IMG/VR virus record: IMGVR_UViG_3300046794_000144
Span: 1 to 52,356 of that record
Source: a virus
Reading direction: 5' to 3' (one strand)
Length of the DNA stretch: 52,356 bases
The notes under the pieces are model-generated. The model saw only the letters and a list, made by a program, of their open reading frames with translations, was not told where the DNA came from and ran no database searches. Shown one piece after another: positions 5,307 through 51,712 of the stretch (its first letter is position 1; every line of letters begins with the position of its first letter). Both the position numbers and the translations under genes were made by a program.

Positions 5307-5504
5307 ATGAGCGCGAAAACCGATGTTGAGGCGATACGGCTGATAGGCGATGAGGTTGTGCGGCTACTCATGCTTCCCGAGGAAAGGCTTGAGGTTGAGG
5401 TCCGCCATGGGCTCAAGCTGATTGCTGACCTGGCTCGATGGCGTGACCTTGCTTATGGGGTAGAACCTCGCGCCTCTGGTAGGTCTTTGTCAGGTCCGCG
5501 TTAA
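5307..5504 (+). CDS. Possible small rightward protein antisense to RT end
   Basis: 65 aa, beginning MSAKTDVEAIRLIGDEVV and helical throughout (LMLPEERLEVEVRHGLKLIADLARW). It fills the only sizeable gap in the leftward block (5214-5412), then overlaps the last 92 bp of the reverse transcriptase on the other strand. AAAGGG lies about 11 nt upstream. It may be a real small gene, or the 5' remnant of a gene truncated when the DGR entered. Confidence 0.35.
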   Translation: MSAKTDVEAIRLIGDEVVRLLMLPEERLEVEVRHGLKLIADLARWRDLAYGVEPRASGRSLSGPR

Positions 5505-6624
5505 CTGTGTTGCCGCGCTTGAGCACAACATTCGCCAGGGTGGCGCGGTCCTTTTGACTGTGGCTGGCCTGACTGAGCAGGCCGAAGTAGCTGTTGGCGG
5601 TCTCGCGCAGATCCTCGGTCGGCGCCGCGGTGGTACGCTTCAGCGCTTGGGCAAGTGACCGCTTGCGGGTGGTGCGCCGCCAGGGCTTGATGACGTGCCC
5701 AACGAAGTCGACGCCCCGGTCCACGGGCTGCAGGATCGTCTTCGTGGGGTTCAGCTTGGCGCCGAGCCTTGGCAGGAACGCTTCGACCTCGGCCAGCCAC
5801 TGGTTGAGCTGCTGCGGCGACTCATGCAGGAGCACGAAGTCATCGACGTACCGGATGTAGTGCTTGGCCCGCAGTGTGTGCTTGGCGAACTGGTCCAGGG
5901 CATCGAGGTAGACGTTGGCGAAGAACTGCGACGACAGGTTGCCGATTGGCAGGCCGAGGTGAGCAGGCTGCGCAACCAGGCGCTTGTGCTGCGGTACCCG
6001 GTTGAACAAGTGCGCCGGGCTTCTGGTCTCGTAATCCTCTCGGGGGTCGTGCATGAGTATCTGCGTGGCCAGGGCCAGCCACCAAGGTTCGGTTATCTTC
6101 GCGGCCAGTTGCTTGCGGAGCACTGCCTTGTCGATAGCGACGAAGAAGTTGGCCAAATCGAGCTTGAGATACCAGCAAGGCTTTGACCAGTTCTGCGAGG
6201 CGCTGCGGATCTTCGATTCAAGGCGCTTGGCGGCGTACAGCGTGCCGCGCCCTGGGATGCACGCGCAACTGTCCGCTATGAAGCTGGCGTAGAAGCGCGG
6301 TGCCACATGGTTGTACAGCAGGTGGTGGACGACGCGGTCCCGAAAGGCTGCTGCCCATACTTCCCGGGCTTTCGGTCGGGTGACTACGAAGCAGATAGAT
6401 CGGCCTGGCCGGTAATTGCCGGCGGTCAGGTCGTTGTACAGCTCGAAGAGATTCAGTTCCAGTTCCTGCTCGAACCGCCGGGCGCTCGCCGTGTTGCGCT
6501 TGCGTCGTCGGCAGTCGTAATACGCTTGAACCAGATCCTCGAACTGTAAGGGTGCAACACTGGAATCTGCGGACAGGGCGCACGCTGCGCTCGTTGTTCT
6601 TGTTGTCGTTGTTCTGGTTGCCAT
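5413..6624 (-). CDS. DGR reverse transcriptase
   Basis: Reverse-transcribes the TR RNA with errors at adenines, producing cDNA that replaces VR sequence. 403 aa. Palm motifs: YLKLD with the first catalytic Asp at 156, YVDD at 259-262, and IGNLSSQ at 227-233. The last matches the IGxxxSQ signature separating DGR RTs from retron and group II RTs (QGxxxSP). No integrase or maturase domain is seen. The only usable ATG I find lies inside the TR, in a different frame from the VR reading frame, so the first about 20 residues are TR-encoded. It is the last gene of the DGR, after avd and TR, as in the Bordetella BPP-1 DGR. Confidence 0.95.
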   Translation of the reverse strand: MATRTTTTRTTSAACALSADSSVAPLQFEDLVQAYYDCRRRKRNTASARRFEQELELNLFELYNDLTAGNYRPGRSICFVVTRPKAREVWAAAFRDRVVHHLLYNHVAPRFYASFIADSCACIPGRGTLYAAKRLESKIRSASQNWSKPCWYLKLDLANFFVAIDKAVLRKQLAAKITEPWWLALATQILMHDPREDYETRSPAHLFNRVPQHKRLVAQPAHLGLPIGNLSSQFFANVYLDALDQFAKHTLRAKHYIRYVDDFVLLHESPQQLNQWLAEVEAFLPRLGAKLNPTKTILQPVDRGVDFVGHVIKPWRRTTRKRSLAQALKRTTAAPTEDLRETANSYFGLLSQASHSQKDRATLANVVLKRGNTVNADLTKTYQRREVLPHKQGHAIEPGQQSA

Positions 6625-6666
6625 CGCTAAAGTCCATGTTGTAGGCGTTGTTGGCTGAGAACTGCG
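6566..6666 (-). repeat. DGR template repeat (TR)
   Basis: 101 nt between avd and the RT. Read on the minus strand, it is packed with AAC/AAY codons in the VR frame (SANNAYNMDFSDGNQNNDNK), which maximises diversity when A is randomised. It aligns without gaps to VR1 (7259-7359) and VR2 (7953-8053). VR1 differs at 13 and VR2 at 12 sites, all at the 33 coding-strand adenines and none at the other 68 positions. The right-hand identical stretch ending GTCCGCAGA is the likely IMH. Confidence 0.95.
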
Positions 6667-6836
6667 ACCTGCCGTGCTATCTACATCGCCCCGCCGAAGG
6701 AGCTCCGATCAGCGGGGAAACTGCGCCGGACCTTCGCGGACGCTTTAGACCGTAGGTATCCGTGGGTGCGCCTGGCGGTGGCCTTTTGGCCAGCGGCACG
6801 ACCAGATTCAGCGCACAGAAGAGAGGGCCTTGACCC

Positions 6837-7193
6837 TCAAGTAGCGGGCGCGGTTGCGGAGCTTCTTTTCCAGGCATTGGCCTGTTTGCCCACCGATGCA
6901 GTGAGCTTCATAACCTTTGCGTGCTGCGGGATGCTCATGAACTGCATGTCCACCATCGTTCGCAGCAACTGATTGATGACCTGAATACTTTCCAGCAGCG
7001 TATTCAGATGAGGGCGCTTATCGCGGGCCATGTTTGCTCGGCCGATCATCCTCAGAACCTCAAGGCACTCGTCCAGAATCTTGACGCCTACCAACTGCTT
7101 CAAATCGCGCGGAATGTTCCGCACTAACTGAATCGCGACGCCAAGTAGTCCCTCGGCTGATTTGTGGATATCCAGATCCATGTGCATGGCCAT
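6837..7193 (-). CDS. avd: DGR accessory variability determinant (Avd)
   Basis: 118 aa, all-helical and moderately basic (NIPRDLKQLVGVKILDECLEVLRMIGRANMARDKRPHLNTLLESIQVINQLLRTMVD). This fits the four-helix-bundle Avd family, which forms a pentamer that binds the RT and the TR RNA and is needed for adenine mutagenesis in BPP-1. It sits between VR1 and TR, the canonical place. AAGGGA precedes the first of three clustered ATGs. About 170 bp between it and the TR hold no gene; this segment is probably part of the structured DGR RNA. Confidence 0.85.
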   Translation of the reverse strand: MAMHMDLDIHKSAEGLLGVAIQLVRNIPRDLKQLVGVKILDECLEVLRMIGRANMARDKRPHLNTLLESIQVINQLLRTMVDMQFMSIPQHAKVMKLTASVGKQANAWKRSSATAPAT

Positions 7194-7211
7194 GCGAAGT
7201 CCCTTAAAGCG

Positions 7212-7227
7212 AGTCGCTGCCGCGACT
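7212..7227 (-). other. Hairpin downstream of VR1
   Basis: AGTCGC and GCGACT arms with a 4-nt loop (GGCA on the coding strand), 31 nt past the VR1 end. In BPP-1 a short GC-rich hairpin or cruciform with a 4-nt loop just downstream of VR promotes target recognition. A weaker GGCC-GTCA-GGCC hairpin (7911-7922) lies 30 nt past VR2. Confidence 0.5.
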
Positions 7228-7243
7228 TAAATGAATGATTGAA

Positions 7244-7852
7244 TTACTGAATAAGTTCTCTGCGGACAGGGCGCACGCCGCGCTCGAGGCCCTTGTAGTC
7301 GCTGTCCTGGCTGCCATCGCTAAAGTCCATGAAGTAGGCGTAGTCGGCTGAGAACTGCGTACTCGACACATACCAACCGGTACCAAATGCCTCCGATCCG
7401 CCCTCTTGAAATTCCGTCAAGGCGGTCTGAGCGGGATAGGTGTCGGTGTATGGGTAGCCGACCGGTACGCTGGATGGGTTGTCCCCGTCGCGCCACGAGC
7501 AATAGTTTTCCTGCTTGGTCGGTTTGAGGTGTCGGTATTGCAACTCTTGTACGTCACGCGCCGGGACACCCCAGTCGGCATGCCCATCAATGACCATGGC
7601 TACCACCTGTTGTGCGAGCTCGCTGCCGGCCGCTGCGAAAGCCTCAGTGTTCGAGCGACTGTCGGTGTAGCTGCGGGCGCCGGCAACATCGACGCCGTAG
7701 CAGCCGATGACACCGCGAAGCTCGAAAGCCTTTGGCGCTTGGATATTTCGGTACAGCTTGCCATCTTCCTGGGTAATACCTATGAAGTGTCCACCGCCAT
7801 AGACCTGACCAATTACGAGATCGAGTTGCGAAGTAGCTGCCAATGCGTTCAT
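7244..7852 (-). CDS. DGR target protein 1 (C-type lectin-like, VR1)
   Basis: 202 aa. The last about 38 residues (from SSTQFSADYAYFMDFSDG to VRPVRRELIQ) are the VR1-encoded variable region. The layout, with a C-terminal variable segment that starts after a Trp/Tyr-rich stretch (GTGWYVSSTQFS) and ends VRPVRR, matches CLec-fold DGR targets. Variable positions relative to TR include Asn to Asp, Tyr, Phe, Ser, Gly and Leu. I see no signal peptide, lipobox or membrane segment. RBS AGGAAG. It lies after a terminator-like hairpin that separates it from target gene 2. Binding partner unknown. Confidence 0.9.
   Translation of the reverse strand: MNALAATSQLDLVIGQVYGGGHFIGITQEDGKLYRNIQAPKAFELRGVIGCYGVDVAGARSYTDSRSNTEAFAAAGSELAQQVVAMVIDGHADWGVPARDVQELQYRHLKPTKQENYCSWRDGDNPSSVPVGYPYTDTYPAQTALTEFQEGGSEAFGTGWYVSSTQFSADYAYFMDFSDGSQDSDYKGLERGVRPVRRELIQ
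7259..7359 (-). repeat. DGR variable repeat 1 (VR1)
   Basis: Gap-free 101-nt match to the TR (offset 693) with 13 substitutions, all at TR adenines of the coding strand. The most 3' substitution (A to G, Ser to Gly in ERGV) bounds the IMH to about the last 20 nt. Confidence 0.95.
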
Positions 7853-7876
7853 GGGTGCTTCCTATTTTTCGGGCAA

Positions 7877-7898
7877 CAAAAAAGGCGCTGGTGCGCCT
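7877..7898 (-). terminator. Intrinsic terminator between the two DGR targets
   Basis: On the minus strand AGGCGC-ACCA-GCGCCT is followed by a T6 run. It lies between the stop of target gene 2 (7941) and the start of target gene 1 (7852), so leftward transcripts may be attenuated before VR1, avd, TR and RT unless antiterminated. Confidence 0.7.
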
Positions 7899-7940
7899 GG
7901 TGTCGTTGATGGCCTGACGGCCTGATTGAAGGAATGAGGA

Positions 7941-8543
7941 TTAAATAAATCGTCTGCGGACAGGGCGCACGCTGCGCTCGCTGGTCTTGTAGGCGTAGTG
8001 CTGGGTGCCAACGCTAAAGCCCATGTGGTAGGCGAGGTTGGCTGAGAACTGCGAGCTCGTGTAGTAATAAACGTCCTGGTCGAACTTGACCGGGCAGTTG
8101 AGCCAGCCCTGATGCATCTCGGCGGCGGCGCCAAGGTAGAAGTCAGTGTGACCGTCGGCGGTGTATTCGGAAGCGGCGATAGCTGCAGGGTGGCTGCCTT
8201 CTTCCAGCAGGATCTTGGTGTTGGCCAGGCCGTCGCGCTTGTCGGTGGCCTTGGATGTTTCGCCGTGGCGACCCCATACGTAGCGCCCAGCATCCTTCGC
8301 GGCGAAGATCAGGTAGTGCTCTGGCACGTTGCCGTGGGCTGCGACGTAGCCGCCGTTGATACCGCCTTCACCGGGCCAGTACTCGCCATATGCAGGGGCG
8401 TCGGCCGATGTCAGCGGCTGAACATTCGTCGCCGGTGGTAGAGTCTGGGTGAGCATGCCGAGCGCGAACAGCTGCACCATGCGCTCTGCGGGGCCTTTGA
8501 TCTTGAAGTCATCAATTTCCACTGAAATCATTTTGGCTTTCAT
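7941..8543 (-). CDS. DGR target protein 2 (C-type lectin-like, VR2)
   Basis: 200 aa. The C-terminal about 38 residues, from SSQFSANLAYHMGFSVG to VRPVRRRFI, are VR2-encoded; the rest shares little obvious sequence with target 1. Centre: YGEYWPGEGGINGGYVA and YVWGRHGE, aromatic and glycine-rich as in CLec-type targets. The N-terminus (MKAKMISVEIDDFKIKG) is not a signal peptide. GAGGTAAACGAA precedes the ATG, 20 nt after the ndpA stop, so it shares the early leftward transcript. It is separated from the tail genes by about 36 kb, so a tail-fibre role cannot be read from position. Confidence 0.9.
   Translation of the reverse strand: MKAKMISVEIDDFKIKGPAERMVQLFALGMLTQTLPPATNVQPLTSADAPAYGEYWPGEGGINGGYVAAHGNVPEHYLIFAAKDAGRYVWGRHGETSKATDKRDGLANTKILLEEGSHPAAIAASEYTADGHTDFYLGAAAEMHQGWLNCPVKFDQDVYYYTSSQFSANLAYHMGFSVGTQHYAYKTSERSVRPVRRRFI
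7953..8053 (-). repeat. DGR variable repeat 2 (VR2)
   Basis: Gap-free 101-nt match to the TR (offset 1387) with 12 substitutions, all at TR adenines. Most substituted sites or bases differ from those in VR1, so the two repeats were diversified independently from one template. Confidence 0.95.
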
Positions 8544-16905: not shown

Positions 16906-17640
16906 CTAGAAGCTCCGTCCGGTCCACCAGTAAATGATTTGTGCTAGAACTTGGATGTCGCTTTCGCGGTCGCCGGGTACGTCAATCTCTCGGTATTGGC
17001 CGTTATCCGAAATAATTGTCAGGCCGTCGAGGTTTCGCTGTATTCGTTTAACGTGGTGCTGGCCGCGCATCAAGAAAAAGTAGATTGCATCTGACTCGAC
17101 AGACGTGACGCCGGAATCTACGAGCAGGGCATCACCGTTACGGATAGTGGGCGCCATGCTGTCTCCGCGACCCGAGATCAGCCTTAGGTTGTCAGTAGAC
17201 GTGTAGACGAGGTTCTGGCGCACCCAATTGGCATCGAGGCGCATGTGCTCAACAACCATGTTCATTTCTGGTGGCTCCGTGCCAGGGCCCATAGAGGCAG
17301 CGATATCTAAGCGCTCAACCGAAATCGTCGGGCGATAGCTTTTTATTTTTTGTGCAAGCGCTTCGGGCAACCCTTCTACATCAATGACATCTGAGCCGCC
17401 TAGGCCTGGCCTGTCGAATGCGTATTCATCCAGCCTGAATTCCTTCTCCACTGCTCTAGCGAAAACCTCGCCTACGTTCTTTGCCCCAGGCTTATCTGGC
17501 GGATACAGGCACCGGGAAATGTAGTCAGGCTGCTTGCCCATACGACGAGCGAATTCAGCTTTCGCGCCATGCTTACCGATGCCGTACTGTCGGTCGATAA
17601 GTAGTTGAAGATTTGCCTTTCTGATCAATTTTATATCCAT
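16906..17640 (-). CDS. cI: CI-type prophage repressor (HTH + S24 peptidase)
   Basis: 244 aa. An N-terminal HTH (AEFARRMGKQPDYISRCLYPP, about 28-48) binds operators; the C-terminal S24 domain has S161 (GDSMAPT) and K198 (HVKRI) as the catalytic dyad. The self-cleavage site would be A115-S116 (AAS-MGPG) rather than the usual Ala-Gly. DNA damage should trigger RecA-stimulated autocleavage. Its promoter region shares operators with cro (17662-17713), giving autoregulation; it must also act 1.2 kb away at PL. It is the only clear lysogeny repressor here. Confidence 0.92.
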   Translation of the reverse strand: MDIKLIRKANLQLLIDRQYGIGKHGAKAEFARRMGKQPDYISRCLYPPDKPGAKNVGEVFARAVEKEFRLDEYAFDRPGLGGSDVIDVEGLPEALAQKIKSYRPTISVERLDIAASMGPGTEPPEMNMVVEHMRLDANWVRQNLVYTSTDNLRLISGRGDSMAPTIRNGDALLVDSGVTSVESDAIYFFLMRGQHHVKRIQRNLDGLTIISDNGQYREIDVPGDRESDIQVLAQIIYWWTGRSF

Positions 17641-24590: not shown

Positions 24591-24971
24591 ATGGCCTTCG
24601 GCCAATTTCTCATGCCCCACGGAGTCGAGCGCATGGAGTATTTACAGCGCCTGCTCGACAAGATCGACAGGTTTGAATTGCTGATTGCGGGCCTCATTGG
24701 GGCCGTGATTGCCAGTTGGTGGCACAAGGACGATCTGGCTGATTGGCGTGCCTGGGTGATCTTCCTTATCACCGGAGTGGCGTGTTCTATCTACCTCACG
24801 AGCATGGTCAGCACCTACCTGGGCGTGACCGAGCCCAAGATCGTCGCCGGCATTGGTTTCCTATTGGGCGCATTCGGCGGCTCGCTCCTGGCGGCCATCA
24901 ACCGAGCCATTAAATCCGCTGACCTTTGGGCACTTATCCGCCAGAGGTTCGGAGGAGGCAATCCACCATGA
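24591..24971 (+). CDS. Holin (three-helix)
   Basis: 126 aa (112 aa if the ATG at 24633, preceded by GGAG, is used). Three hydrophobic segments: IAGLIGAVIASWW, WVIFLITGVACSIYLTSMV, and IVAGIGFLLGAFGGSLLAAI. This matches Pseudomonas-phage putative holins. It forms lesions in the inner membrane to release endolysin. Two closely spaced starts could give holin and antiholin forms. It opens the late block although the endolysin lies 26 kb away at the other end. Confidence 0.75.
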   Translation: MAFGQFLMPHGVERMEYLQRLLDKIDRFELLIAGLIGAVIASWWHKDDLADWRAWVIFLITGVACSIYLTSMVSTYLGVTEPKIVAGIGFLLGAFGGSLLAAINRAIKSADLWALIRQRFGGGNPP

Positions 24972-25303
24972 ATCTTGAACTGATCAACTCCATCGCCTGC
25001 GGCCTCATCGCCTTATGGGCGGCCTGGTGCGTACTGAGCGGAAAGGTGAGGGACGGCATCCTTGGGAAGCTGATCTATTCGGTTATCGCCATAAGCGGTT
25101 TTGTCGCCATGGCGCGCAACCAGAACATCTTCCTTGCGCCAACCACGGCGGGCACGACGCTTCTTGTGTTCTTGGCCCTGGCCGGTGCCCGCCACGTCTT
25201 CATGGTCACGTACTGGCAGCGGGTGAAGGCATGGCTGTGCCAGACGCTGAACTGCGAGCACTGCATGACCTGCACCGATGATCGCAGACGCAAGACCGAT
25301 TAA
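24968..25303 (+). CDS. Membrane protein, possible second holin or antiholin
   Basis: 111 aa. Three hydrophobic segments (IACGLIALWAAWCVL, IYSVIAISGFVAMA, TTLLVFLALAGARHVFMV) and a Cys-rich tail (CQTLNCEHCMTC). The start overlaps the holin stop. By position it may assist or regulate the holin. Confidence 0.6.
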   Translation: MNLELINSIACGLIALWAAWCVLSGKVRDGILGKLIYSVIAISGFVAMARNQNIFLAPTTAGTTLLVFLALAGARHVFMVTYWQRVKAWLCQTLNCEHCMTCTDDRRRKTD

Positions 25304-41434: not shown

Positions 41435-41814
41435 TGATCGATCACGACAAATACCTCGCGGGCCAGTACCTCGAGGGCGGGAGAGTGTGGCCGCTTGTTG
41501 ACTGCTACGGCCTTGTGCTGGAGGTGCGCCGCGACCTCGGCATGCCGGATTGGCCTGAGTGGGCGGACATCCGCGCCGGCGACGGCTCGATGGTCGAGGT
41601 GGCCGGTAAGTGGTTCCCCACGCTCACGCCGTGCGAGCCGGAGGAGGGCGCATTGATTGCGCTCTACCAGGGCAGTGAGATGCGTCACGTAGGCGTGGTG
41701 GTTCGCTGCGGGGCCTCGCTTGAGGCAATGGAAATCACCGAGAAGCAACGCACAATCTGCCTGCCTCTGCACAGGCTCAAGCGCCGCTTCGTGCGGGTGG
41801 AGTATTACAAGTGA
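41434..41814 (+). CDS. NlpC/P60-family tail protein (gpK-like)
   Basis: 126 aa. Catalytic Cys24 (VDCYGLVLEVRRDLG) and His85 (MRHVGVVV) match the NlpC/P60 cysteine peptidase pattern. It may cleave peptidoglycan stems or act in tail-tip assembly. The ATG overlaps the previous TAA. Confidence 0.82.
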   Translation: MIDHDKYLAGQYLEGGRVWPLVDCYGLVLEVRRDLGMPDWPEWADIRAGDGSMVEVAGKWFPTLTPCEPEEGALIALYQGSEMRHVGVVVRCGASLEAMEITEKQRTICLPLHRLKRRFVRVEYYK

Positions 41815-44800
41815 TTGAAATTTACCCATCCCGCATTGGCGTAAAAAGTGGCGACTGCGTGCCGCTGGAGTCACACCAGGTAAGTGAACCTATTTCCTTG
41901 GCTGGCTGGCTTTCAGCAAATGCCGCCGGCTTCGACCTTGATGCCATGCACCCTATCTGCATCGAGGTAGAAGGGAAGTCGGTGTCGGTTGATCAGTGGC
42001 CGGTGACCATTATCGATTGCAACACGAACGTGATGATTTTCCCCGAGGCGCGCGCTGTCGGTGCGGCCGCTGCTGCCTGGGCCGCGGTGGCATTGGCCGC
42101 CATCTCGATTGTGATGATCCTCACGATGCCAAAGGCGAAGGCCGCAAAGCAACAGCAAGGCGACGATCTGGATGCAGTTACGGCCACCGGCAACCATGCA
42201 AAGCTGAACTCGCCTATTCGTGAGGTGCTAGGCATGGCCAAGGTTTATCCAGACCTGCTGGTGCCGCCTGTAACGCGCTTCGTAAACAAGAGGGCGATGG
42301 TGACAACCCTGGCCATGTCCGTTGGTCGGGGGCGGAATTCTATTCCTCCAAGCACGCTTAAGGTTGGCGACACGCCATTCGCTGCGTTTGGTTCCGACCT
42401 GAATTACACCATCTATGAGCCAGGCGCATCGCTTCGTGGTGATTCGCGAGCGCGAAACTGGTATCCAGCCACAGAGGTAGGCGGCACGAACGCTGGCACC
42501 GCCGGCCTCGACCTATCCAGCACCGCGCCTTCGGAGTCGGCTGCACTGGCAGATTCCATGCTGATCAGCGGCAATACGGTTTCTTTGCTTGGTAACAGCC
42601 CACGATTCCCTGATGCGTGGGACGCAGGCACTGTCGTTCGACTGGTAACCCCCGACACCTTCACGGTAACGAGCTCAGGCTCGTACAGCCGAATCGCCGG
42701 CGCCTTGTCCGACCTTGCGCCGTTCGTTGGCATGAAGGTAACGCTGGGTAGTGATTCAGAGATCGATTTGACGGTGGTCAGCGTGACTCCGTATGTCGCG
42801 CCAGTCCCAGGGGTTGGTGGGTCTCCGTCTATGGTTACAGGCAGCGCGTCGCCTTCCGGCTACGACTTCACGTCAGGCGCAGTGGTGTGGTCTGTGACCT
42901 TCCAGGGCGTCACCAAGACCATATCCCTGAACACCAACTATGTGAACATGAGCGGGCTTGTATCGACGATCACTTCCCAGTTGTCGGGCACCGGTCTTGT
43001 GGCACAAGACAGTTCCGGCCGGCTTCGCCTGATTGAGCCGCTCAGCCCTTATAAAGGTGGCCCGATCTCGCAAACCAGCGCGCCGGTGCCGATCTTCGGC
43101 TCTGGGCCGACCTATACCGTCGGTACCGCCTCGGCAGGCGGCACGCCGGAACAGCTTGCGAGTGTCACGTTGAGCTTTGATAACGGCACGCCTTTCTCTG
43201 GTGTCGCTGCCGGCCAGCAACGGCTTTCCCTTGCCTACCGAGGCTACAGGTTTCAAATCGTCTCGGTTTCAGGTCTCACCGCCACAGTGAAAAGAATCAC
43301 TGATACGGGCGTGGTCGACAATGCCTGGGCTGGATTCACAGCCAGAACCTTGCTCGACTTCTCGATGTCAGGAAGCGGCGGGGCAGGCAACTGGATCGGC
43401 TCGTTCATGGGCTGCCCAGAATACGAATTGGCAACACAGGCTGAATATGATGTCTTCCTAAGCCAGGGCCTCTGCTATTACAGCAAGTCCGGCAATATAA
43501 AAATGCTCACCAAGTCGATCGAGGTGCGATGGAGGGATTCGGCCATAGGTGGAGCGTGGACAACCATCACCCATACATATACCGATGCAACCCCTGATCA
43601 GATTGGCTTCACACACGGAATCGTTTTTCCTTACCCACTACGCCCTGAGTTTCAAATGCGACGGGTTCAGCCGGTCGAGGGCGGTCAGGTGCGTGACGCG
43701 ATTCAATGGTACGGCCTGCGCACGCTGCTGCCCGATCCCGGCTCTTACGAGGGGATCACCGTCATCACCATGGATATCCGTGGCGGCGATCGCCTCAGCG
43801 CCCAGTCTGAGCGTCAGATCAACTGTGTGCCGACTCGAATCTACGACAATGCGCCGGCGCGATCCATCAAAGGGGCTGCGCTGCATGTTTGTCAGGGCCT
43901 CGGGATTGATGAGTCGCTGATCGACATGGATGCGCTGAATGCAGTGGACCAGGACTATTGGACGCCGCGTAGCGAGCTATATGACATGTCTCACGAAAAG
44001 CCAGCGGCTATCCGTGAGGTCCTACAGGGAATTTTCACTGCTGGCATGTCGCACCTGTCCAGCGGAAACGGATTGCTCAGCGTGAAGCGGGAAGGGATTC
44101 AGCCGCCGCGCGGGGTTATCACGCCGCACGAAATGACCAGCGAACTGGCGGCCAGCTTCACCGCGCCAAGCCCTGACGACTTCGACGGGGTAGACGTTGA
44201 ATACATCGACCAATATACCAACCGTAAGGAAACAAGGCCTTGCCGACTGGATGGAAGCCTTGGCCTCAAGATCGACAAAATACAGCTGGATGGGGTGTCA
44301 GACGAAACCCGCGCCTGGCGCATCGGAATGAGGCAGTTACGCAAGTATCAGTTCTCGCGCTGGGGCTACAGCGTCGATACGGAGATGGATGCTCTGGTGT
44401 TTGACGACATCGACCACATCACACTGGCCGATGACATCCCGAACACCACCAGCAGCGCGCTGATCATGGGGGTTGAGAGTGTAGGTGGGCAGTACCTATT
44501 GACGCTAAGCGAAGAAATGGACTGGTCTATGGCTTCTCCTCGGGCAGTCATACGCAGACACGATGGCACGGTAACCAGTCTGTTCGAGCCAAAGGTTGCT
44601 GGCTTTCATCAGGTGCTGGTGCCGCTCACTGCTATCGACTTCGAGATTGTTACGGACCTCAGCATTGAGCCTGCCCGCTTCCTGTTTGGACCAAGCGAGC
44701 AGGTCGGATACCCCGCAATGATCACAGAGATCACACCAAACCAAGATGGCTCCTGTGCTGTAACCGCAACCGAGTACTCGCCTGTGTTCTACGCAGACGA

Positions 44801-44828
44801 TGACAACTACCCGCCTGCATCGGCGTAG
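41811..44828 (+). CDS. Tail tip / host-specificity protein (gpJ-like)
   Basis: 1005 aa, GTG start overlapping the previous stop. The N-terminal about 90 residues carry a ubiquitin-like region and a hydrophobic helix (GAAAAAWAAVALAAISIVMIL, gpI-like), so I and J parts look fused. Further on: SPIREVLGMAKVYPDLLVPPV, then KTISLNTNYVNM and GGDRLSAQSERQINCVPTRIY, all typical of J-like proteins. It forms the tail hub to which the spike attaches. Confidence 0.88.
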   Translation: MIEIYPSRIGVKSGDCVPLESHQVSEPISLAGWLSANAAGFDLDAMHPICIEVEGKSVSVDQWPVTIIDCNTNVMIFPEARAVGAAAAAWAAVALAAISIVMILTMPKAKAAKQQQGDDLDAVTATGNHAKLNSPIREVLGMAKVYPDLLVPPVTRFVNKRAMVTTLAMSVGRGRNSIPPSTLKVGDTPFAAFGSDLNYTIYEPGASLRGDSRARNWYPATEVGGTNAGTAGLDLSSTAPSESAALADSMLISGNTVSLLGNSPRFPDAWDAGTVVRLVTPDTFTVTSSGSYSRIAGALSDLAPFVGMKVTLGSDSEIDLTVVSVTPYVAPVPGVGGSPSMVTGSASPSGYDFTSGAVVWSVTFQGVTKTISLNTNYVNMSGLVSTITSQLSGTGLVAQDSSGRLRLIEPLSPYKGGPISQTSAPVPIFGSGPTYTVGTASAGGTPEQLASVTLSFDNGTPFSGVAAGQQRLSLAYRGYRFQIVSVSGLTATVKRITDTGVVDNAWAGFTARTLLDFSMSGSGGAGNWIGSFMGCPEYELATQAEYDVFLSQGLCYYSKSGNIKMLTKSIEVRWRDSAIGGAWTTITHTYTDATPDQIGFTHGIVFPYPLRPEFQMRRVQPVEGGQVRDAIQWYGLRTLLPDPGSYEGITVITMDIRGGDRLSAQSERQINCVPTRIYDNAPARSIKGAALHVCQGLGIDESLIDMDALNAVDQDYWTPRSELYDMSHEKPAAIREVLQGIFTAGMSHLSSGNGLLSVKREGIQPPRGVITPHEMTSELAASFTAPSPDDFDGVDVEYIDQYTNRKETRPCRLDGSLGLKIDKIQLDGVSDETRAWRIGMRQLRKYQFSRWGYSVDTEMDALVFDDIDHITLADDIPNTTSSALIMGVESVGGQYLLTLSEEMDWSMASPRAVIRRHDGTVTSLFEPKVAGFHQVLVPLTAIDFEIVTDLSIEPARFLFGPSEQVGYPAMITEITPNQDGSCAVTATEYSPVFYADDDNYPPASA

Positions 44829-44843
44829 GTATCAAACCTTCCA

Positions 44844-44870
44844 CGGCCCGCCACTGAGCGGGCTTTTTTT
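44844..44870 (+). terminator. Terminator before spike gene, copy A of repeated element
   Basis: CGGCCCGCCACTGAGCGGGC plus T7 or more. The same 27-nt element is at 50751-50777, in the same orientation. Confidence 0.85.
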
Positions 44871-44887
44871 TGCCTCGGGGGAAAACC

Positions 44888-47068
44888 ATGGCCTATAACA
44901 CCGGGAACCCTGTTGAGCCAAATGGCTCGACTGATCCGCGCGACCTTCGCGACAATGCCCAAATCCTCGACAAGCTCGTGAACAGCTCTGACCTTACCTG
45001 GCTTGGGCGCCTGGGGAAGGCGCTCAAGACCTGGGCAGGCATGGAGAAAGACTTTTCCGATCTACTGCTTCGCTCAGGCTTTGAATCGATCTACATCCCA
45101 TATGCCGCTGGTGCGGTAGTGGATCGTGCCACGCAGCTGGTACAGCGCGACGGCGATCTCTACCGTGTAACGAACCAAGCTGATCTTCCCCTGACTTTGT
45201 CGGGGACGTGGGCTGCTGACGCGCCAAAGCTCACAGCTGTAGCCGATCAGGGGCTACGCTCAGCTCTCGCTGGCCCGGCCGGTACTACTATGGTCGGTCG
45301 GCCGAGTGGGACGCTCGAAGACTCTCTTCTTCAGTTCGACAAAACCCTGTTGCCTGGCTTCCTGAAGCAGCAAGGCAGCGTTCTCAGAACTCTGTCAGGT
45401 TCTACGCTTGGAGATGTCAGCCAGTTTTCCAGAGCTCTTGCGGCTGGACTAGTGAAGATCGTTATTGCTGGCGACAGTATCGCTGAAGGGAAAAGTCAGG
45501 TTAACCCTGATGATTCCTGGGTTATGGTTTTCGTGCGGGCTCTTCGTGCGGCGTATCCTGGTGTGACGTTCGTCGTCGCAAACATGAGCCTTGCTGGTCG
45601 AGGGACGGGCAACCTGGCAAGCGATGGATATGTCGGTATAGCCGGTCCTGATAATCCGGAAGTTGGGTTTTACCAAGCTCCGGGGTCTCAGTCGACTGGT
45701 CACTGGCCCGCAGGAAGTACAATTGGAAAAACTTGGAAGGAGCACATTCGAGATCAGGCGCCAGACCTGATCATTCAACCTCTTGGAATGAATGATCTTA
45801 CCGGGACAAGCAACGACAATGCTGCTGTAACGAAACTATGTCTTGATTATTACAGAACTTTCCCAAAGGTCCCATCTGTTGCCCTCATGACTCCTATGCA
45901 GCCGAGCAATCTAATCCCTCCTTTCGATGGTTTTCAGGAGAGAATTAGAGCTAACGCAGAGATTTACAGGGGGATTTGTGCACAGTTCAATCTCACGCTT
46001 CTGGATGCCAATAGACTTTGTTTCCTGTATCGGGACGCTGTGGACATCGTCAACACCAAAGGGCATCGTCGCTTAATCGATGGATTCCCGACTGGATGGA
46101 CAAAGCTTAGCGGGTCAGGATATTCCATCTCTGGCGGCGTTCTAACCGGCAGCGGTATCACGCGCCGAGATGAAGCCTGTCGTGACGTTTACATCGATGT
46201 AGCATTCACGCTTTCGAATTACACGACAATGGTTCCTGGCGTCGAGTATCGAATGGATCTGGCCACGCCCGCCAATGCTTACACCGTGCAGATTCAAAGT
46301 GGCACGACGGTGATTTTGTACTGGCAAAGCACCGTTCTTTCCTCCGACCTTATCGCCCCCCTTGTAAATGGGGCGCCGGTGAGAATTGAGGTTAAGTGCC
46401 GTGGTGCTCAGCATAGGATTTATGTAAACAGAGCGCTTGTTCTCACCTGGTACGACTACAACAAGCTTAGTGAGGGGGCTACTGCGGTTTCAATAGATGG
46501 TGGTTCTGGGGCAATTTCGAATTACACCATGGTTAAGTTTGAGCCGCTGGCGGTTGGGCGCCAGATGTTCAGCCAGGGTGATCTGCTTGGTTATGTAAAC
46601 GACTTCGATACAAATCCAGACTCGCTTGGTGGTAGCGCTGGGAACCACCCATCAGCTCTTGGGCACTCAGTAATGTATGCCGACGCATGTTTGCCGATGT
46701 TCAGGATTCCCAGGGCGTCTGGGTCATCCGTGGCGTTCGCAAAAGCTACCGGCACAGAGAACTTCTATGGGTCTTCAGCTGGGCCATCTGCGAGAACTCA
46801 AGTTGACGGGATAAACGGTCCTCTTCTTCTCGTGAGCGGCGTTACTGGTGGCGAAATTTGCTCGCTCCAGCAAGTCGAATTGGTAGCGGGAGGAAGATCT
46901 ATCAACATCAACGTCCAAAGCACGACCTCGGCAGGAACCGCCGCAATTCTCTCGACAAACCTTGTTCTGGGGTCAGGTAGCTGGGTTGTGACAGTAAGAG
47001 CAACCCTAAGTCGAAATGCTTCTGGAGTGCTGAATGCGCTTGATGCTGTGGCGATAAAGGCGGCGTAA
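44888..47068 (+). CDS. Tail spike with SGNH esterase domain
   Basis: 726 aa. Residues 1-150 are a Pseudomonas-phage spike head-binding part (YNTGNPVEPNGSTDPRDLRD; DLYRVTNQADLPLTLSGTW). An SGNH hydrolase domain follows: S197 (GDSIAEG), N302 (GMND), H587 in NHPSALGH. A beta-rich insert lies between (about 395-555). It should bind and deacylate surface polysaccharide during infection. The D of the usual DxxH block is not seen. Base use is more A+T-rich than the tail genes upstream. Confidence 0.85.
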   Translation: MAYNTGNPVEPNGSTDPRDLRDNAQILDKLVNSSDLTWLGRLGKALKTWAGMEKDFSDLLLRSGFESIYIPYAAGAVVDRATQLVQRDGDLYRVTNQADLPLTLSGTWAADAPKLTAVADQGLRSALAGPAGTTMVGRPSGTLEDSLLQFDKTLLPGFLKQQGSVLRTLSGSTLGDVSQFSRALAAGLVKIVIAGDSIAEGKSQVNPDDSWVMVFVRALRAAYPGVTFVVANMSLAGRGTGNLASDGYVGIAGPDNPEVGFYQAPGSQSTGHWPAGSTIGKTWKEHIRDQAPDLIIQPLGMNDLTGTSNDNAAVTKLCLDYYRTFPKVPSVALMTPMQPSNLIPPFDGFQERIRANAEIYRGICAQFNLTLLDANRLCFLYRDAVDIVNTKGHRRLIDGFPTGWTKLSGSGYSISGGVLTGSGITRRDEACRDVYIDVAFTLSNYTTMVPGVEYRMDLATPANAYTVQIQSGTTVILYWQSTVLSSDLIAPLVNGAPVRIEVKCRGAQHRIYVNRALVLTWYDYNKLSEGATAVSIDGGSGAISNYTMVKFEPLAVGRQMFSQGDLLGYVNDFDTNPDSLGGSAGNHPSALGHSVMYADACLPMFRIPRASGSSVAFAKATGTENFYGSSAGPSARTQVDGINGPLLLVSGVTGGEICSLQQVELVAGGRSININVQSTTSAGTAAILSTNLVLGSGSWVVTVRATLSRNASGVLNALDAVAIKAA

Positions 47069-47140
47069 TCCATAACATTATGGCGTACCTATTCAACCGT
47101 TTATGGCAAAATGCAATCCCCTTGGAATAGTGTGGATTGC

Positions 47141-48622
47141 ATGCGCCCCTTAGCCTTTTTGATCTCGTTGTTGGCGCTGCCTGCGCTTTTTTCTGTAGCT
47201 TCTGTCTCCGGCAGCCCTCCATTGGTTCTGAAAGCCGAACCTAAGGAGGTTATCGCCTACTCGGAAGCGCCAACTCCATTTTCTGCTGAGCCGTTCCGCA
47301 TGGATCTGGCCACTTACATAAAGGCGATAGCGAGCGGCAGGGTAAAGGTTGTCTATCTTGGGGATTCGATTACTGAGGGGGTTTCGCAGGTTCGCTATGA
47401 AGACTCGTGGGCTGGAAGGCTCTCTGAGTCTCTGCGGCGAGCCAGGCCGGATGTTAAATTTGAATTTTCAAACCTTAGCCTTGCTGGGCGAGGAATTGCC
47501 CAGGTAACAAATCCTAATTATCGAGCAATGCCGGGGGCTGATAGTCCAGCTGTCGGGTTCCATCGAGACCCCTCACATGGCGGAATCTCCGATCAATGGC
47601 CATTAGGAAGTAAGGAAGGGCTGTCCTGGATTGATCAGGTTCGACTGGAGAAGCCTGATCTCGTTATTTTGGCATTTGGCATGAATGATCGTGGTAGCCC
47701 TGGCGACATAGCTAGGCTCACAAAGCAGGTTCTGAAAGATATTAAGTCCTTTGAAAAAGTCCCTTCGGTTGCTCTTGTTACTTCGATACTGCCTACGCGG
47801 AAAGTAAAATATTTCAACGACATTCAAGACGCTGTTCAAATTACAGCTGATGTATATCGGTCCATGTCGAAAGAACATAGCTTGATTTTACTCGATGCAA
47901 ACTGGCGATATCATATGCTGCGCGACGGGATTGATATCAACTCTTGGAAAACCATTACTCGTGGTCTTGATGAGTACCCTGGCAATTTCAGGAAACTGTC
48001 TGGTTTCGGGTTTGATCTTCAAGGAACACTTCTGTACGGGTACGGTGCAATCGAACATAAGATATCGATAGCAAATCTTGATGTAACGTCAGCATTCATC
48101 CTTAACGATTATGCTGAGCAAACTCCGTCAGTTTGGTACCGGGTTGATAGAAAAGACATCATGAAGTCGTATCGGGTTCAGATTGCCATGGGAAACGAGG
48201 CAATTCTGTTCTACGGTATGACCCCTATCGCTTCAGGGAAGATAGAAGCCTTAACGCCTGGACAGAAAGCAACCATTCGAGTATCAGCGATCGACGGACA
48301 CCATATCGTATGGGTTAACGGGGTTCAGGTTATTGAGGTCTGGGACTACCGATCATTCTCGAAAGGCTCGGTCATCTTGCAGACCGATGACGGTCCGATG
48401 GGAGGGATTCTTGACTACTCGCTAAAAGAGTATGTTCACGTCAAAGGCTTTACCGAGACGTATACGGAAGATCAAATGCTCGGCATCAACGACTTTGGCA
48501 TTAATCCAAATTCCCTAGGTGGGAGCGCGACAAATCACCCAAGCAACCTTGGGCACTCAGCTGTCTATCTCGGTGCCGCTTGGCCATTGATCGAGACCAC
48601 AAGGGCAGTAGAGACAAGATGA
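47141..48622 (+). CDS. Secreted SGNH hydrolase, paralogue of the spike esterase
   Basis: 493 aa from an ATG giving a clear signal peptide (RPLAFLISLLALPALFSVASVSG); an ATG at 47111 would add 10 residues. The mature protein follows the spike esterase along its length: S76 (GDSITEG), SLAGRGI, N182 (GMND), H466 (NHPSNLGH), and the beta-rich insert including YRVDRKDIMKSYRVQIAMGN. It has no head-binding domain, so it is not a virion part by itself and should act in the periplasm or outside. Confidence 0.85.
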   Translation: MRPLAFLISLLALPALFSVASVSGSPPLVLKAEPKEVIAYSEAPTPFSAEPFRMDLATYIKAIASGRVKVVYLGDSITEGVSQVRYEDSWAGRLSESLRRARPDVKFEFSNLSLAGRGIAQVTNPNYRAMPGADSPAVGFHRDPSHGGISDQWPLGSKEGLSWIDQVRLEKPDLVILAFGMNDRGSPGDIARLTKQVLKDIKSFEKVPSVALVTSILPTRKVKYFNDIQDAVQITADVYRSMSKEHSLILLDANWRYHMLRDGIDINSWKTITRGLDEYPGNFRKLSGFGFDLQGTLLYGYGAIEHKISIANLDVTSAFILNDYAEQTPSVWYRVDRKDIMKSYRVQIAMGNEAILFYGMTPIASGKIEALTPGQKATIRVSAIDGHHIVWVNGVQVIEVWDYRSFSKGSVILQTDDGPMGGILDYSLKEYVHVKGFTETYTEDQMLGINDFGINPNSLGGSATNHPSNLGHSAVYLGAAWPLIETTRAVETR

Positions 48623-48626
48623 TAAG

Positions 48627-48656
48627 AGGGGCCGTAGTAGCGGCCCCTTTTTATCA
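48627..48656. terminator. Bidirectional terminator between convergent genes
   Basis: AGGGGCCG-TAGTAG-CGGCCCCT with flanking T-rich sequence between the secreted esterase and the opposing acyltransferase. Confidence 0.8.
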
Positions 48657-50660
48657 TTTTATCAATATGCCGGGTGCATTTTTTTCGGCCCACTTAGCAA
48701 ATATCTTGGCGAGTTCGATACTGCCGAACTCCGAGTAATGTCCGTACTCATCACGGTAAAGCGGCATTCCGTCCTGTATTCCTGAGCACTTATTGTCATC
48801 GCACAGCAATGTGTTTTGATCGAAGAAGCGGACGCCCGGATGTGACCTGGATATCGATTCGATGACCGGCGCGTAAGCGAGATCAATCCCGGAGCGCTGC
48901 TCGTAGCTTATAGAGCAATCATTGATAGGGGCTTTGAATGGGCGCGCGAAGCATCCCTTGGCATCATATCCAAGCATTAGATGGGGGATGAAAACGATAA
49001 CAGATACATTCATCTGCTCAAGTTGGCCAATGTAGGTTTCTAGCCTGGTGGCGTACGCCGCATCAGGAGCTGGATTAAGCCCGTCGAGGATCGCGTACTT
49101 GACTGAGCCGGACTTTGTGATGATGTCGTTTATGAGATTCTTCTGTTGCAGTGGGCGATCGCCTGAACATGGGTGCGTTGTCAGCGGTGTGCCGGCTGGT
49201 GCAGTGTCAGGATTGGCTGGATCGCAGGTCCCAATCGACAGAATTGTGTTGTGCATGGTCTCGGGATTCTGTGCAAGTCCCGCGTACAGGTGGTTTGCAA
49301 AGCTGGTACCTATTAGCATCACAGTAGGGCTGGAGTCCTTGCTCTCCATGCAGAACCACCACCCAAAGTCAGCAGACCCTGCAAGCGGGTGCTTCGCCAT
49401 GCAGCTATCGTTCTTAGTGTATTTCCACAATGGCCCGACGAACTGGGAGTTGATCTTCTCCGAAAAGCGGATCATTGCACGATCGGGTATGCCATCCAGC
49501 TTATAAGTGACATAGCCGGCTACGCCCATGATCACCATCAGCGCGGAGAGCACAGCGGTTTTCATGCCGCTCCCCACATTTTTAAGTGGAGTTTCGATCA
49601 AGCGGAAGGTGAGCCATGCCAGAAGAACCGAAAGCGCCACTGCGATCCAGCGTATTTCAGGGGATGGCGTCCCGCTCTCTATGATCCGTGCGAACGTAAG
49701 CAATGGCCAGTGCCATAGGTATAGAGGGAAACTGATCAGCCCTACAAAGACGACTGCTTTATTGGAGAGGATGATCCGGTTGAACCAAGCATGGGGGCCA
49801 GCCGCGATAATAAGTACTGACCCGACAGTAGGAAGAAGTGCCCACCAGCCGGGGAACTGGTTATTTTTCGTGACCAGGGAGAACGCCAACACCAGCATTG
49901 CCATGCCGGAAAATGATTGAGCGTTCCGAAGGAGCTGGTTTGAGCTCCCCCTCCAGGACGGGAACAGCTTGCTTTTGTTCATGGTTACGTAGGCCAAGAA
50001 CGAACCAGTAAGAAGCTCCCAAAATCGCGTTTGCGGTGAATAGAAAACAGATACTGCATCTGTTTTTATATTGCTAATATTTAGCCAGAAAGAAATGGCG
50101 GCTACTGCAATAGTTAGGAGTAATGGGTTGAATCGTATCTTCCAGGCGGTCCATAGAATCAGAGGCCAGATTAGGTAGAATTGCTCCTCGATACCAAGCG
50201 ACCAAAGATGAAGAAGTATTTTGGTCTCTGCCGAGTTGTCAAAGTATCCAGACTCATTGAGAAGTACTATGTTTGAAACAAACGCTGTACCGCCAGCGAT
50301 GTGTTTCCCGAGCTGCATGAACTCATCTGCAAACAGAGAAAACCATCCAAACGACCAGCTTGCAAATAAGACCAGCAATAGCGCTGGGAATATTCTGTTT
50401 ACTCGTCTGCTGTAGAAAACACCAAAGCTGAATTTACCTTTTTCTAATCCACCGAAAATAATACTGCTAATCAGAAAACCTGAAATAACGAAGAATACAT
50501 CTACCCCGACAAATCCCCCCTGAATATATGAGGGGAATGCATGAAAAAGAACCACAGATAGAACGGCGATTGCGCGCATCCCATCAATATCGGGCCTATA
50601 TTTTGGGTGGTCCAGGTGTGCGCTCTTGGCCAGATCAGCCGGTGTAGAGGTAGATGTCAT
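48654..50660 (-). CDS. O-acyltransferase (acyltransferase-3 + SGNH, OafA/B-like)
   Basis: 668 aa from the ATG at 50660; an ATG at 50678 is possible. Acyltransferase-3 membrane domain: YRPDIDGMRAIAVLSVVLFHAFP, GVDVFFVISGFLISSII, RVNRIFPALL, HLWSLGIEEQFYLIWPLILW, SFPLYLWHWPLL; about ten helices. A C-terminal SGNH-like domain (about 425-668) has GTSFANHLY and DEYGHYSEFGS. It should transfer acetyl from the cytoplasm to O-antigen, a conversion gene as in phage D3. It is transcribed against the late genes and A+T-richer than its surroundings. Confidence 0.9.
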   Translation of the reverse strand: MTSTSTPADLAKSAHLDHPKYRPDIDGMRAIAVLSVVLFHAFPSYIQGGFVGVDVFFVISGFLISSIIFGGLEKGKFSFGVFYSRRVNRIFPALLLVLFASWSFGWFSLFADEFMQLGKHIAGGTAFVSNIVLLNESGYFDNSAETKILLHLWSLGIEEQFYLIWPLILWTAWKIRFNPLLLTIAVAAISFWLNISNIKTDAVSVFYSPQTRFWELLTGSFLAYVTMNKSKLFPSWRGSSNQLLRNAQSFSGMAMLVLAFSLVTKNNQFPGWWALLPTVGSVLIIAAGPHAWFNRIILSNKAVVFVGLISFPLYLWHWPLLTFARIIESGTPSPEIRWIAVALSVLLAWLTFRLIETPLKNVGSGMKTAVLSALMVIMGVAGYVTYKLDGIPDRAMIRFSEKINSQFVGPLWKYTKNDSCMAKHPLAGSADFGWWFCMESKDSSPTVMLIGTSFANHLYAGLAQNPETMHNTILSIGTCDPANPDTAPAGTPLTTHPCSGDRPLQQKNLINDIITKSGSVKYAILDGLNPAPDAAYATRLETYIGQLEQMNVSVIVFIPHLMLGYDAKGCFARPFKAPINDCSISYEQRSGIDLAYAPVIESISRSHPGVRFFDQNTLLCDDNKCSGIQDGMPLYRDEYGHYSEFGSIELAKIFAKWAEKNAPGILIK

Positions 50661-50750
50661 CGGTTGCCGTAGCTCCATTGTTCTTTCGCCCCATCCCCGG
50701 GGCGGCAACATGCTACCCGACTCACGCCATTTAGCGAATTTTTGAATAAT

Positions 50751-50777
50751 CGGCCCGCCACTGAGCGGGCTTTTTTT
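50751..50777 (+). terminator. Terminator before endolysin, copy B of repeated element
   Basis: CGGCCCGCCACTGAGCGGGC plus T7, identical to 44844-44870. Downstream GCCTGGAG supplies the endolysin RBS; upstream copy A has GCCTCGGGG. Confidence 0.85.
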
Positions 50778-50792
50778 CGCCTGGAGAAAAGT

Positions 50793-51218
50793 ATGCCGAT
50801 CACCGAAACCCGTGGGGTACGCAACCGCAACCCGGGCAACATCGATTACAACCCGGCCAACCAATGGCAGGGCCAGCTCAAGCCTGATCCAGCTATTGAG
50901 AAACGCTTTGCCCGGTTCGACACGCCAGAGAATGGCATTCGTGCCTTGGGCAAGTTGCTGCTGACCTATCAGCGCAAGCATGGGCTCAAGACGGTGAAGG
51001 CGATTATCAGCCGGTGGGCACCGTCGGTGGAGAACGACACGGCGGCCTATGTGCGTGCCGTGGAGGCGAACACCGGCACTAAGCCGGGCGCTGAGATCGA
51101 TCTGACCCAGGAGCCGGTCATGCGCGGCTTCGTCAAGGCGATCATCCACCACGAGAACGCAGGGTATGCCTATCCTGATGCGGTGCTGGCAGAAGGCGTG
51201 CGCAGGGCGCTGGCATGA
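50793..51218 (+). CDS. Endolysin (P5-like muramidase/transglycosylase type)
   Basis: 141 aa. RGVRNRNPGNIDYNPANQWQ and FDTPENGIRALGKLLLTYQRKHGLKTVKAIISRW match the phage structural protein P5/lytic-transglycosylase-like group. It lacks a signal peptide, so release depends on the holin. It overlaps Rz by 4 nt. Confidence 0.82.
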   Translation: MPITETRGVRNRNPGNIDYNPANQWQGQLKPDPAIEKRFARFDTPENGIRALGKLLLTYQRKHGLKTVKAIISRWAPSVENDTAAYVRAVEANTGTKPGAEIDLTQEPVMRGFVKAIIHHENAGYAYPDAVLAEGVRRALA

Positions 51219-51712
51219 CGCCGGTGCAGAAGCTGGTCATGGTGTTGCTGGCGATGGTCATTGCTTGTTTTTCCACATGGAAAGTGGACGCCTGGCGCTA
51301 TGGAAAGCAACTGTCCGAACTCAACCTAGCTCATCAGGCCGACCTGACCACTATCAGCAATGCTGCCAACACTCAAACTCGCCAGGCGCTGGAGAAGCAA
51401 CAGGCCGCCGAGCAAGCGCGTGCCGACCTCGATGCCAAGTCGACAAAGGAGAGAATGAATGATCTCGCTGAAAATGAAAGGCTGCGGCGCGCTGCTGACG
51501 ATTCTGCTCGCCGGTTGCGCATCGCGGGCAGTTGTCGTGCCGATAGCGGCGACGTGTCCAGTTCCACCAGCACCGCCAGCCTGGGCAATGCAGGAACCGT
51601 CGAACTCGCTCCAGCTGCTGGACGAACTGTTTTCGATATCAGGGCCGGGATCATTGCCGACCAGGCAGCCTTAAGGGTGCTGCAGAAGTTTGTGAGGGAG
51701 GTGTGCCAGTAG
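51215..51712 (+). CDS. Rz-like i-spanin
   Basis: 165 aa. N-terminal membrane anchor (KLVMVLLAMVIACFSTWKV), then a coiled coil (ALEKQQAAEQARADLDAKSTKERMND). With Rz1 it links inner and outer membranes for the final lysis step. Overlaps the endolysin by 4 nt and contains Rz1 out of frame. Confidence 0.85.
   Translation: MTPVQKLVMVLLAMVIACFSTWKVDAWRYGKQLSELNLAHQADLTTISNAANTQTRQALEKQQAAEQARADLDAKSTKERMNDLAENERLRRAADDSARRLRIAGSCRADSGDVSSSTSTASLGNAGTVELAPAAGRTVFDIRAGIIADQAALRVLQKFVREVCQ
51459..51674 (+). CDS. Rz1-like outer-membrane lipoprotein
   Basis: 71 aa in the +1 frame within Rz. Lipobox LLAGC with Cys20, followed by Pro-rich CPVPPAPPAW. The classic nested Rz1. The RBS is inside Rz. Confidence 0.85.
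   Translation: MISLKMKGCGALLTILLAGCASRAVVVPIAATCPVPPAPPAWAMQEPSNSLQLLDELFSISGPGSLPTRQP

What the first reader, a model, noticed from the sequence alone, without database searches (positions are those of the whole stretch)
44888..50660. Spike esterase, secreted esterase paralogue and O-acyltransferase in one cassette
The spike has an SGNH esterase domain; the next gene encodes the same esterase plus insert with a signal peptide and no virion-binding domain; the third is an acyltransferase facing them. Proposed: the acyltransferase converts the lysogen surface, the spike recognises or removes the acyl group on new hosts, and the secreted copy strips the cell or free polysaccharide to release or protect progeny. 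I know of no described phage with this trio.
Basis: partly seen in the sequence, partly recalled or inferred. Interest (0 to 1): 0.85.

Follow-up and report, generated by a model that had tools for sequence, protein, structure and literature searches.

The report
Exported twin of a phage tailspike esterase
A bacterial virus carries, next to its receptor-binding tailspike enzyme, a second copy of that enzyme that has lost the part that fixes it to the virus and gained an export tag, beside a gene that chemically decorates the host surface; this may let the virus erase its own docking site.

Summary
The trio is real and at the stated coordinates. Spike 44888-47068 joins a D3-type virion anchor to an SGNH (GDSL-type) esterase domain split by a ~180-residue insert. 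The next gene, 47141-48622, has the same SGNH+insert module (37% identity over 437 aa) behind a Sec signal peptide, without the anchor or the spike's C-terminal domain. The convergent gene 48654-50660 is an AT3-SGNH O-antigen acylase (phrog_6705, 617 bits). Two of the three parts form a known pair: spike facing an O-antigen acylase occurs in PAJU2, D14O, Tr60_Ab31 and BTP1; 37 of 102 AT3 loci have a large convergent neighbour, 8 of them SGNH by Pfam. The exported twin is the new part. No homologue covering more than 25% of it was found in 50,697 phage records; pattern scans of IMG/VR and GTDB found none (close relatives only). One independent analogue exists: prophage L004 has a different SGNH spike body behind a Tat signal, in the same slot, facing a 62%-identical acylase. 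GC content suggests everything after the spike's anchor is foreign. Best reading: an exported receptor eraser working from the periplasm, probably late in infection, beside D3-like surface conversion. Anatomy is shown; substrate, timing and effect are inferred.

The parts
44844..44875 (+). Hairpin terminator before the spike gene; 97% identical 32-nt copy at 50751-50782
   Evidence: the same hairpin recurs at 35235 and 16855(-) in the window and before spike genes of D3-like loci
44888..47068 (+). Tailspike, 726 aa: D3-type anchor (~1-145), SGNH domain (~190-380, S197, G237, N302), insert (~395-575), SGNH block V (H587), C-terminal domain (612-726)
47141..48622 (+). Exported twin (est), 493 aa: signal peptide (~1-24), linker, SGNH + same insert (55-489; S76, G116, N182, H466), no anchor, no C-terminal domain
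48624..48651 (.). Terminator hairpin between est and the convergent acylase
48654..50660 (-). AT3-SGNH O-antigen acyltransferase (oac), 668 aa (a start 18 nt upstream, at 50678, is also possible)
50751..50782 (+). Second copy of the hairpin terminator, directly before the endolysin gene
45338..50660 (.). Probable foreign segment: spike after the anchor (GC 0.519), est (0.486), oac (0.496) against 0.58 outside and 0.589 in the spike's anchor
   Evidence: inference from base composition

Best explanation
The cassette is a receptor-remodelling module of a D3-like temperate Pseudomonas phage. The spike binds the host O-antigen (or another surface polysaccharide) and removes an acyl group from it, as G7C gp63.1 does. 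The convergent AT3-SGNH protein acylates O-antigen in the lysogen, as D3 Oac does, so that new phage no longer bind. The exported twin is the spike's catalytic and probable carbohydrate-contacting module with the virion anchor replaced by a signal peptide. In the periplasm it meets O-antigen units on the same face where the acylase works, and it removes the acyl groups that the spike needs. Cells making phage then stop displaying the receptor, and on lysis the enzyme cleans debris, so progeny are not lost to dead or already infected cells. Shown: domains, homology, missing anchor, signal peptide (by eye), gene order, base composition. Inferred: esterase activity, shared substrate, periplasmic action, late expression, effect on adsorption.
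For: The twin shares the whole SGNH+insert module with the spike and nothing else, and the SGNH S, G, N, H residues are kept in both. The low-GC segment begins inside the spike just after the anchor and runs through est and oac, which suggests joint acquisition. The acylase belongs to phrog_6705; D3 has spike, iap, O-antigen acetylase and wzy-beta in this slot. An independent analogue exists: L004 has a Tat-signal protein homologous to the body, not the anchor, of the phiA014S and phiA014L spikes, facing a 62%-identical acylase. SGNH prophage receptor-binding proteins are active esterases (PMC13123978, passages); deacetylation by G7C gp63.1 is essential for infection and hosts lacking O-unit acetylation resist G7C (PMC10743462, passages): removing that acyl group is enough to remove the receptor. 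AT3-SGNH enzymes work on O-antigen at the periplasmic face (PMC9558356, passages).
Against: 37% identity does not prove the same substrate. The triad Asp is replaced in both enzymes. No homologue of the twin is known to show that it is conserved by selection; the window is a single case. In L004 no spike paralogous to the exported protein lies in the same record, so 'erases its own receptor' does not follow there. No expression data and no clear promoter. The structure model failed.
Confidence: 0.42

Rival explanations
1. Acyl editing in the lysogen: est removes the host's own O-acyl groups in the periplasm so that the phage acylase can put its own at another position, giving a complete serotype switch. 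It would be expressed from the prophage.
For: est and the acylase's SGNH domain would share the compartment (PMC9558356 passages); D3 likewise combines removal of a host function (iap) with a new one (wzy-beta) in the same slot.
Against: est lies on the late strand behind the spike without a clear promoter of its own; nothing ties it to lysogenic expression.
Confidence: 0.2
2. Host-benefit or nutrient esterase: a moron that acts on an unrelated substrate (exopolysaccharide, plant polymer, another strain's polysaccharide) and whose likeness to the spike only reflects a shared SGNH+insert domain family.
For: Low GC (0.486) and own terminator fit a moron; 37% identity leaves room for a changed specificity.
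Against: The insert is conserved as well as the catalytic domain, no such secreted esterase was found outside this phage with the searches available, and it lies exactly beside its paralogue.
Confidence: 0.2
3. SGNH acyltransferase partner: est is a PatB-like soluble SGNH protein that takes acyl groups from the AT3 protein and places them on a second acceptor.
For: Soluble SGNH proteins can work with AT3 proteins (PatB with WecH, in PMC9558356 passages).
Against: The acylase has its own fused SGNH domain (PF19040), and est's nearest relative is a spike.
Confidence: 0.08
4. Passive relic: a former spike module kept by chance after recombination in the spike region, with no function of its own.
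For: Spike regions are mosaics; receptor modules are swapped behind conserved anchors.
Against: Open frame of 493 aa, SGNH residues intact, signal peptide exactly in place of the anchor, and a second case with a Tat signal (L004).
Confidence: 0.1

Closest known systems
Pseudomonas phage D3 serotype-conversion region (orf27 spike, iap, orf28 O-antigen acetylase, wzy-beta)
   Same: Spike with homologous anchor (40% over 137 aa), O-antigen acetylase in the next slot, same tail neighbourhood
   Different: D3's spike is pectate-lyase-like, its acetylase is read in the spike's direction and only 28% identical to the window's, and it has iap and wzy-beta instead of an exported esterase
PAJU2, D14O, Tr60_Ab31 and Salmonella phage BTP1: spike convergent with O-antigen acetylase
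   Same: Convergent spike/acylase pair, gap 7-46 nt
   Different: No gene between spike and acylase, hence no exported twin
L105/G019 prophage
   Same: D3-type anchor, SGNH spike, convergent AT3-SGNH acylase: closest in overall design
   Different: No exported twin; the spike's SGNH domain is not split by the insert
L004 prophage (IMG/VR 2523533507)
   Same: Exported (Tat-signal) spike-body SGNH protein between the tail fibre genes and a convergent acylase 62% identical to the window's
   Different: Different spike family (phiA014S type), Tat instead of Sec, no SGNH spike paralogue found in the record
Coliphage G7C gp63.1 deacetylase tailspike
   Same: SGNH-type esterase spike on O-antigen (PMC10743462, PMC13123978, passages)
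   Different: Virulent phage (recalled); the passages read mention no exported copy and no acylase

Membership tests
SGNH/GDSL hydrolases (spike and est) | Pfam profile match above curated cut-off | tested here: met
   PF13472 36.3 bits (spike) and 45.2 bits (est) against 32.9
SGNH/GDSL hydrolases (spike and est) | Conserved Ser, Gly, Asn, His in blocks I, II, III, V | tested here: met
   Spike S197, G237, N302, H587; est S76, G116, N182, H466
SGNH/GDSL hydrolases (spike and est) | Asp three residues before the catalytic His (recalled) | tested here: not met
   Ala in both; whether another residue replaces it needs a structure
SGNH/GDSL hydrolases (spike and est) | Esterase activity | not testable with these tools
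   needs an assay
D3-type phage tailspikes (spike) | Homologous N-terminal anchor, gene after the central tail protein J | tested here: met
   67 phage records match the spike, those listed mostly over its first ~147 residues; tail J gene directly upstream
Phage O-antigen acetylases (phrog_6705, AT3-SGNH) | Full-length profile match with AT3 and fused SGNH domain | tested here: met
   616.7 bits over residues 18-660; PF01757 103.9 and PF19040 75.9 bits
Phage O-antigen acetylases (phrog_6705, AT3-SGNH) | Acylation of O-antigen in the lysogen | not testable with these tools
   inferred from D3 Oac (PMC11436027, passage)
Virion tailspikes (est) | N-terminal virion anchor | tested here: not met
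   Homology to the spike starts at est residue 55, at the SGNH domain; a signal peptide precedes it
Receptor-erasing superinfection exclusion (est) | Loss of adsorption caused by est | not testable with these tools
   works-like claim only
AT3/MBOAT-dependent SGNH transferase partners (PatB type) | Partner acyl donor that lacks its own SGNH domain | tested here: not met
   The neighbouring AT3 protein has PF19040

The most novel reading that the evidence does not exclude
Temperate phages repeatedly turn tailspike receptor enzymes into exported enzymes by replacing the virion anchor with a Sec or Tat signal, and keep them beside the surface acylase. The phage thus acts on its own receptor from three sides (virion, periplasm, biosynthesis), like the receptor-destroying enzyme of an enveloped virus but made in the periplasm of the producing cell.
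Probability: 0.3. Interest if true: 0.78.

Novelty: new variant of a known kind. Interest (0 to 1): 0.55.

Why it matters
Phages that need a surface sugar for entry lose progeny to debris and to already infected cells. Lysogens solve part of this by masking the receptor (D3 Oac; also Sf6 Oac and P22 Gtr). An exported version of the spike's own enzyme would be a second, enzymatic solution matched to the spike by descent. It would also give a rule for finding such genes: spike catalytic modules that have lost the anchor and gained a signal peptide. It can be tested directly with two purified proteins and one deletion.

Tried and rejected
Chance likeness of spike and esterase: rejected (E 5e-94 over 437 aa). 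'The trio is wholly new': rejected for the spike+acylase pair. Terminator repeat as a special recombination site of this cassette: weakened, since the hairpin occurs four times in the window and before the spike gene of several D3-like loci; the GC break lies inside the spike instead. Fold of est: the job gave pLDDT 38, so no fold search was run. Homologues of est: none by tblastn in plasmids; in phages only two records of one Escherichia phage covering 25% of the query at 27.5%; none by pattern scans of IMG/VR and GTDB contigs (with the spike as query), nor by an A1 profile over ORFs of at least 150 aa from 116 fetched loci. Pattern scans reach close relatives only. More relatives of the L004 protein: only L004 itself in IMG/VR. 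Diversity-generating retroelement acting on the spike: no template match in the cassette. Control for the home-made signal heuristic: it flags 3 of 71 ORFs of the window (holin-like, Rz, one probably spurious ORF); with the longer start at 47111 it does not flag est, whose signal was judged from the 47141 start by eye. In L105 the heuristic flagged an internal start and was discounted, because the true start shows the D3 anchor. Among the 37 convergent neighbours a signal-like N-terminus is seen in L004 and in L028 (577 aa, no BLAST match to the window's spike or twin; not a spike as far as seen). One search's printout was cut, so for about a dozen loci in the middle of the list signals were judged only where one search printed the N-terminus. 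The PF13472 search of 29 records misses at least L106, which hmmscan finds, so its counts are lower bounds.
Full report
What is there. The window is an IMG/VR virus record of 52,356 bases with a prophage layout: integrase at 152-1408, CI-like repressor at 16906-17640, terminase, major head protein and tail genes, central tail protein J at 41811-44828 (phrog_469), then the reported cassette, then endolysin and Rz. Its best DNA matches in GenBank phages are Pseudomonas phages of the phiPSA1 type (80% over 7% of the 22 kb queried), so a Pseudomonas host is likely but inferred.

The spike (44888-47068) has three parts. Residues 1 to about 145 match the N-terminus of D3-like tail proteins (67 phage records match the spike) and a solved phage tail protein (9occ, E 1.5e-5). 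An SGNH domain follows (PF13472, 36.3 bits), interrupted by about 180 residues before its last catalytic block. A C-terminal part of about 115 residues ends the protein. The next gene (47141-48622) has the same interrupted SGNH module at 37% identity over 437 aa, but neither the anchor nor the C-terminal part. Its first residues form a Sec-type signal peptide, judged by eye. Ser, Gly, Asn and His of the SGNH blocks are present in both; the usual Asp before the His is Ala in both. A weak Pfam match of the insert in est (3-keto-disaccharide hydrolase, E 0.0012, below its cut-off) hints at a sugar-binding jelly roll. AlphaFold on the two-sequence alignment failed (pLDDT 38), so this stays a hint.

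The third gene (48654-50660, minus) is an AT3 acyltransferase with a fused SGNH domain and matches phrog_6705, O-antigen acetylase, over its full length at 616.7 bits.

Base composition. The spike anchor has GC 0.589, like the rest of the phage (0.58). The spike after the anchor has 0.519, est 0.486, oac 0.496, and the lysis gene returns to 0.61 (profile). The simplest reading is that the receptor module, twin and acylase came in as one segment joined inside the spike gene. A 32-nt hairpin terminator is repeated at both outer edges, but it is a common module-boundary hairpin in this phage group.

How common is the pair? Of 112 loci with a BLAST match to oac, 10 duplicates were dropped; of the remaining 102, 37 have a convergent ORF of at least 450 aa within 500 nt of the acylase's 3' end. 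Many of these are recognisable spikes: P22-type, T7-anchor type, beta-helix type and D3-anchor type. Eight of the 37 match PF13472, and L004 has SGNH motifs and homology to an SGNH spike without a Pfam match of its own. Related members are counted separately (for instance L106-L108), so independent cases are fewer. Named phages with the convergent pair and nothing between are D14O, PAJU2, Tr60_Ab31 and BTP1. D3 has iap between spike and acetylase, and its acetylase runs in the spike's direction. L105 has a D3-type anchor, an SGNH spike and the convergent acylase, but no exported twin. So two of the three parts of the finding are a known arrangement.

The exported twin is what is unusual. tblastn in 50,697 phage records gave only two records of one Escherichia phage covering 25% of the twin at 27.5% identity, and there was none in 72,556 plasmids. 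Pattern scans in IMG/VR and GTDB contigs found none, but these reach close relatives only. Of 29 records searched with PF13472, two (the window and L052's record) have two matches; the second in L052's record is a 591-aa protein whose first residues show no signal peptide.

An independent analogue. L004 encodes, in the same slot beside an acylase 62% identical to the window's, a protein whose N-terminus reads MDNRVSRARRKFLQILGLGVGAISVDAVARG, a Tat-type signal by eye. From residue 72 on it is homologous (29%) to the spike of Aeromonas phage phiA014S, which has a T7-type anchor before that point. Here too the virion anchor has been replaced by an export signal. Against a simple reading, no second spike of that type lies in the L004 record, and IMG/VR gave no further relative of the protein.

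Mechanism. What the literature read here supports: SGNH receptor-binding proteins of prophages can be active esterases (PMC13123978, passages); deacetylation by the G7C spike is essential for infection, and hosts lacking that acetylation resist G7C (PMC10743462, passages); D3 Oac blocks D3 binding by acetylating O-antigen (PMC11436027, passage); AT3-SGNH acylases act on O-antigen at the periplasmic face (PMC9558356, passages). Putting these together, an exported copy of an acyl-removing spike module would remove the receptor while it is being made. Expression is unknown. est follows the spike by 72 nt on the late strand with no terminator between them, and the best sigma-70-like site before it scores 8 of 12, so late co-expression with the spike is my preferred guess. 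Then the main gain would be protecting progeny rather than marking the lysogen, while the acylase, on the opposite strand to the late genes, would do the latter.

Novelty. Text searches of the open PubMed Central library (listings with starts of abstracts) and passages of five papers (PMC13123978, PMC10743462, PMC11436027, PMC7326022, PMC9558356) showed no description of a signal-peptide spike paralogue. PMC13123978 mentions SGNH proteins within two genes of Klebsiella prophage receptor-binding proteins that lack known domains (its S11 Fig, legend and passage only). Whether any of those are exported was not stated in the passages seen and would be worth checking.

Verdict. Observation confirmed; interpretation partly supported; a new variant of a known kind (prophage receptor modification), with an interesting and easily tested new component.

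Noticed in passing
5413-8543 (-): A diversity-generating retroelement: reverse transcriptase 5416-6624(-) (phrog_1423, 397 bits; PF00078) with a 105-nt repeat at 6566-6670 and two similar repeats (7259-7363, 7953-8057) at the 3' ends of ORFs 7244-7852(-) and 7941-8543(-). Against the first repeat as template, 13 of 15 and 12 of 13 differences fall on template adenines. The targets lie in the early region, not in the tail.
   Followed up: partly
24926-25303 (+) and 50785-51712 (+): Lysis genes are split: a holin (phrog_2508) lies shortly before the terminase gene, while endolysin and Rz lie at the far end behind the cassette.
   Followed up: no
16855(-), 35235, 44847, 50754: The same CCCGCCACTGAGCGGGC-type hairpin terminator occurs four times in the window and before the spike gene in several D3-like loci, apparently marking module borders.
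   Followed up: partly
L010 1526-2665(-), 3190-5280(+), 6427-7599(-): One prophage locus appears to hold three acyltransferase-3-like genes within 6 kb; only the 6427-7599 one was confirmed by Pfam besides the query match.
   Followed up: no
L052 / G014:C1:29864-30412: A 63-kb virus record with an SGNH spike beside the acylase and a second SGNH protein (591 aa) some 19 kb away, with no signal peptide seen.
   Followed up: no
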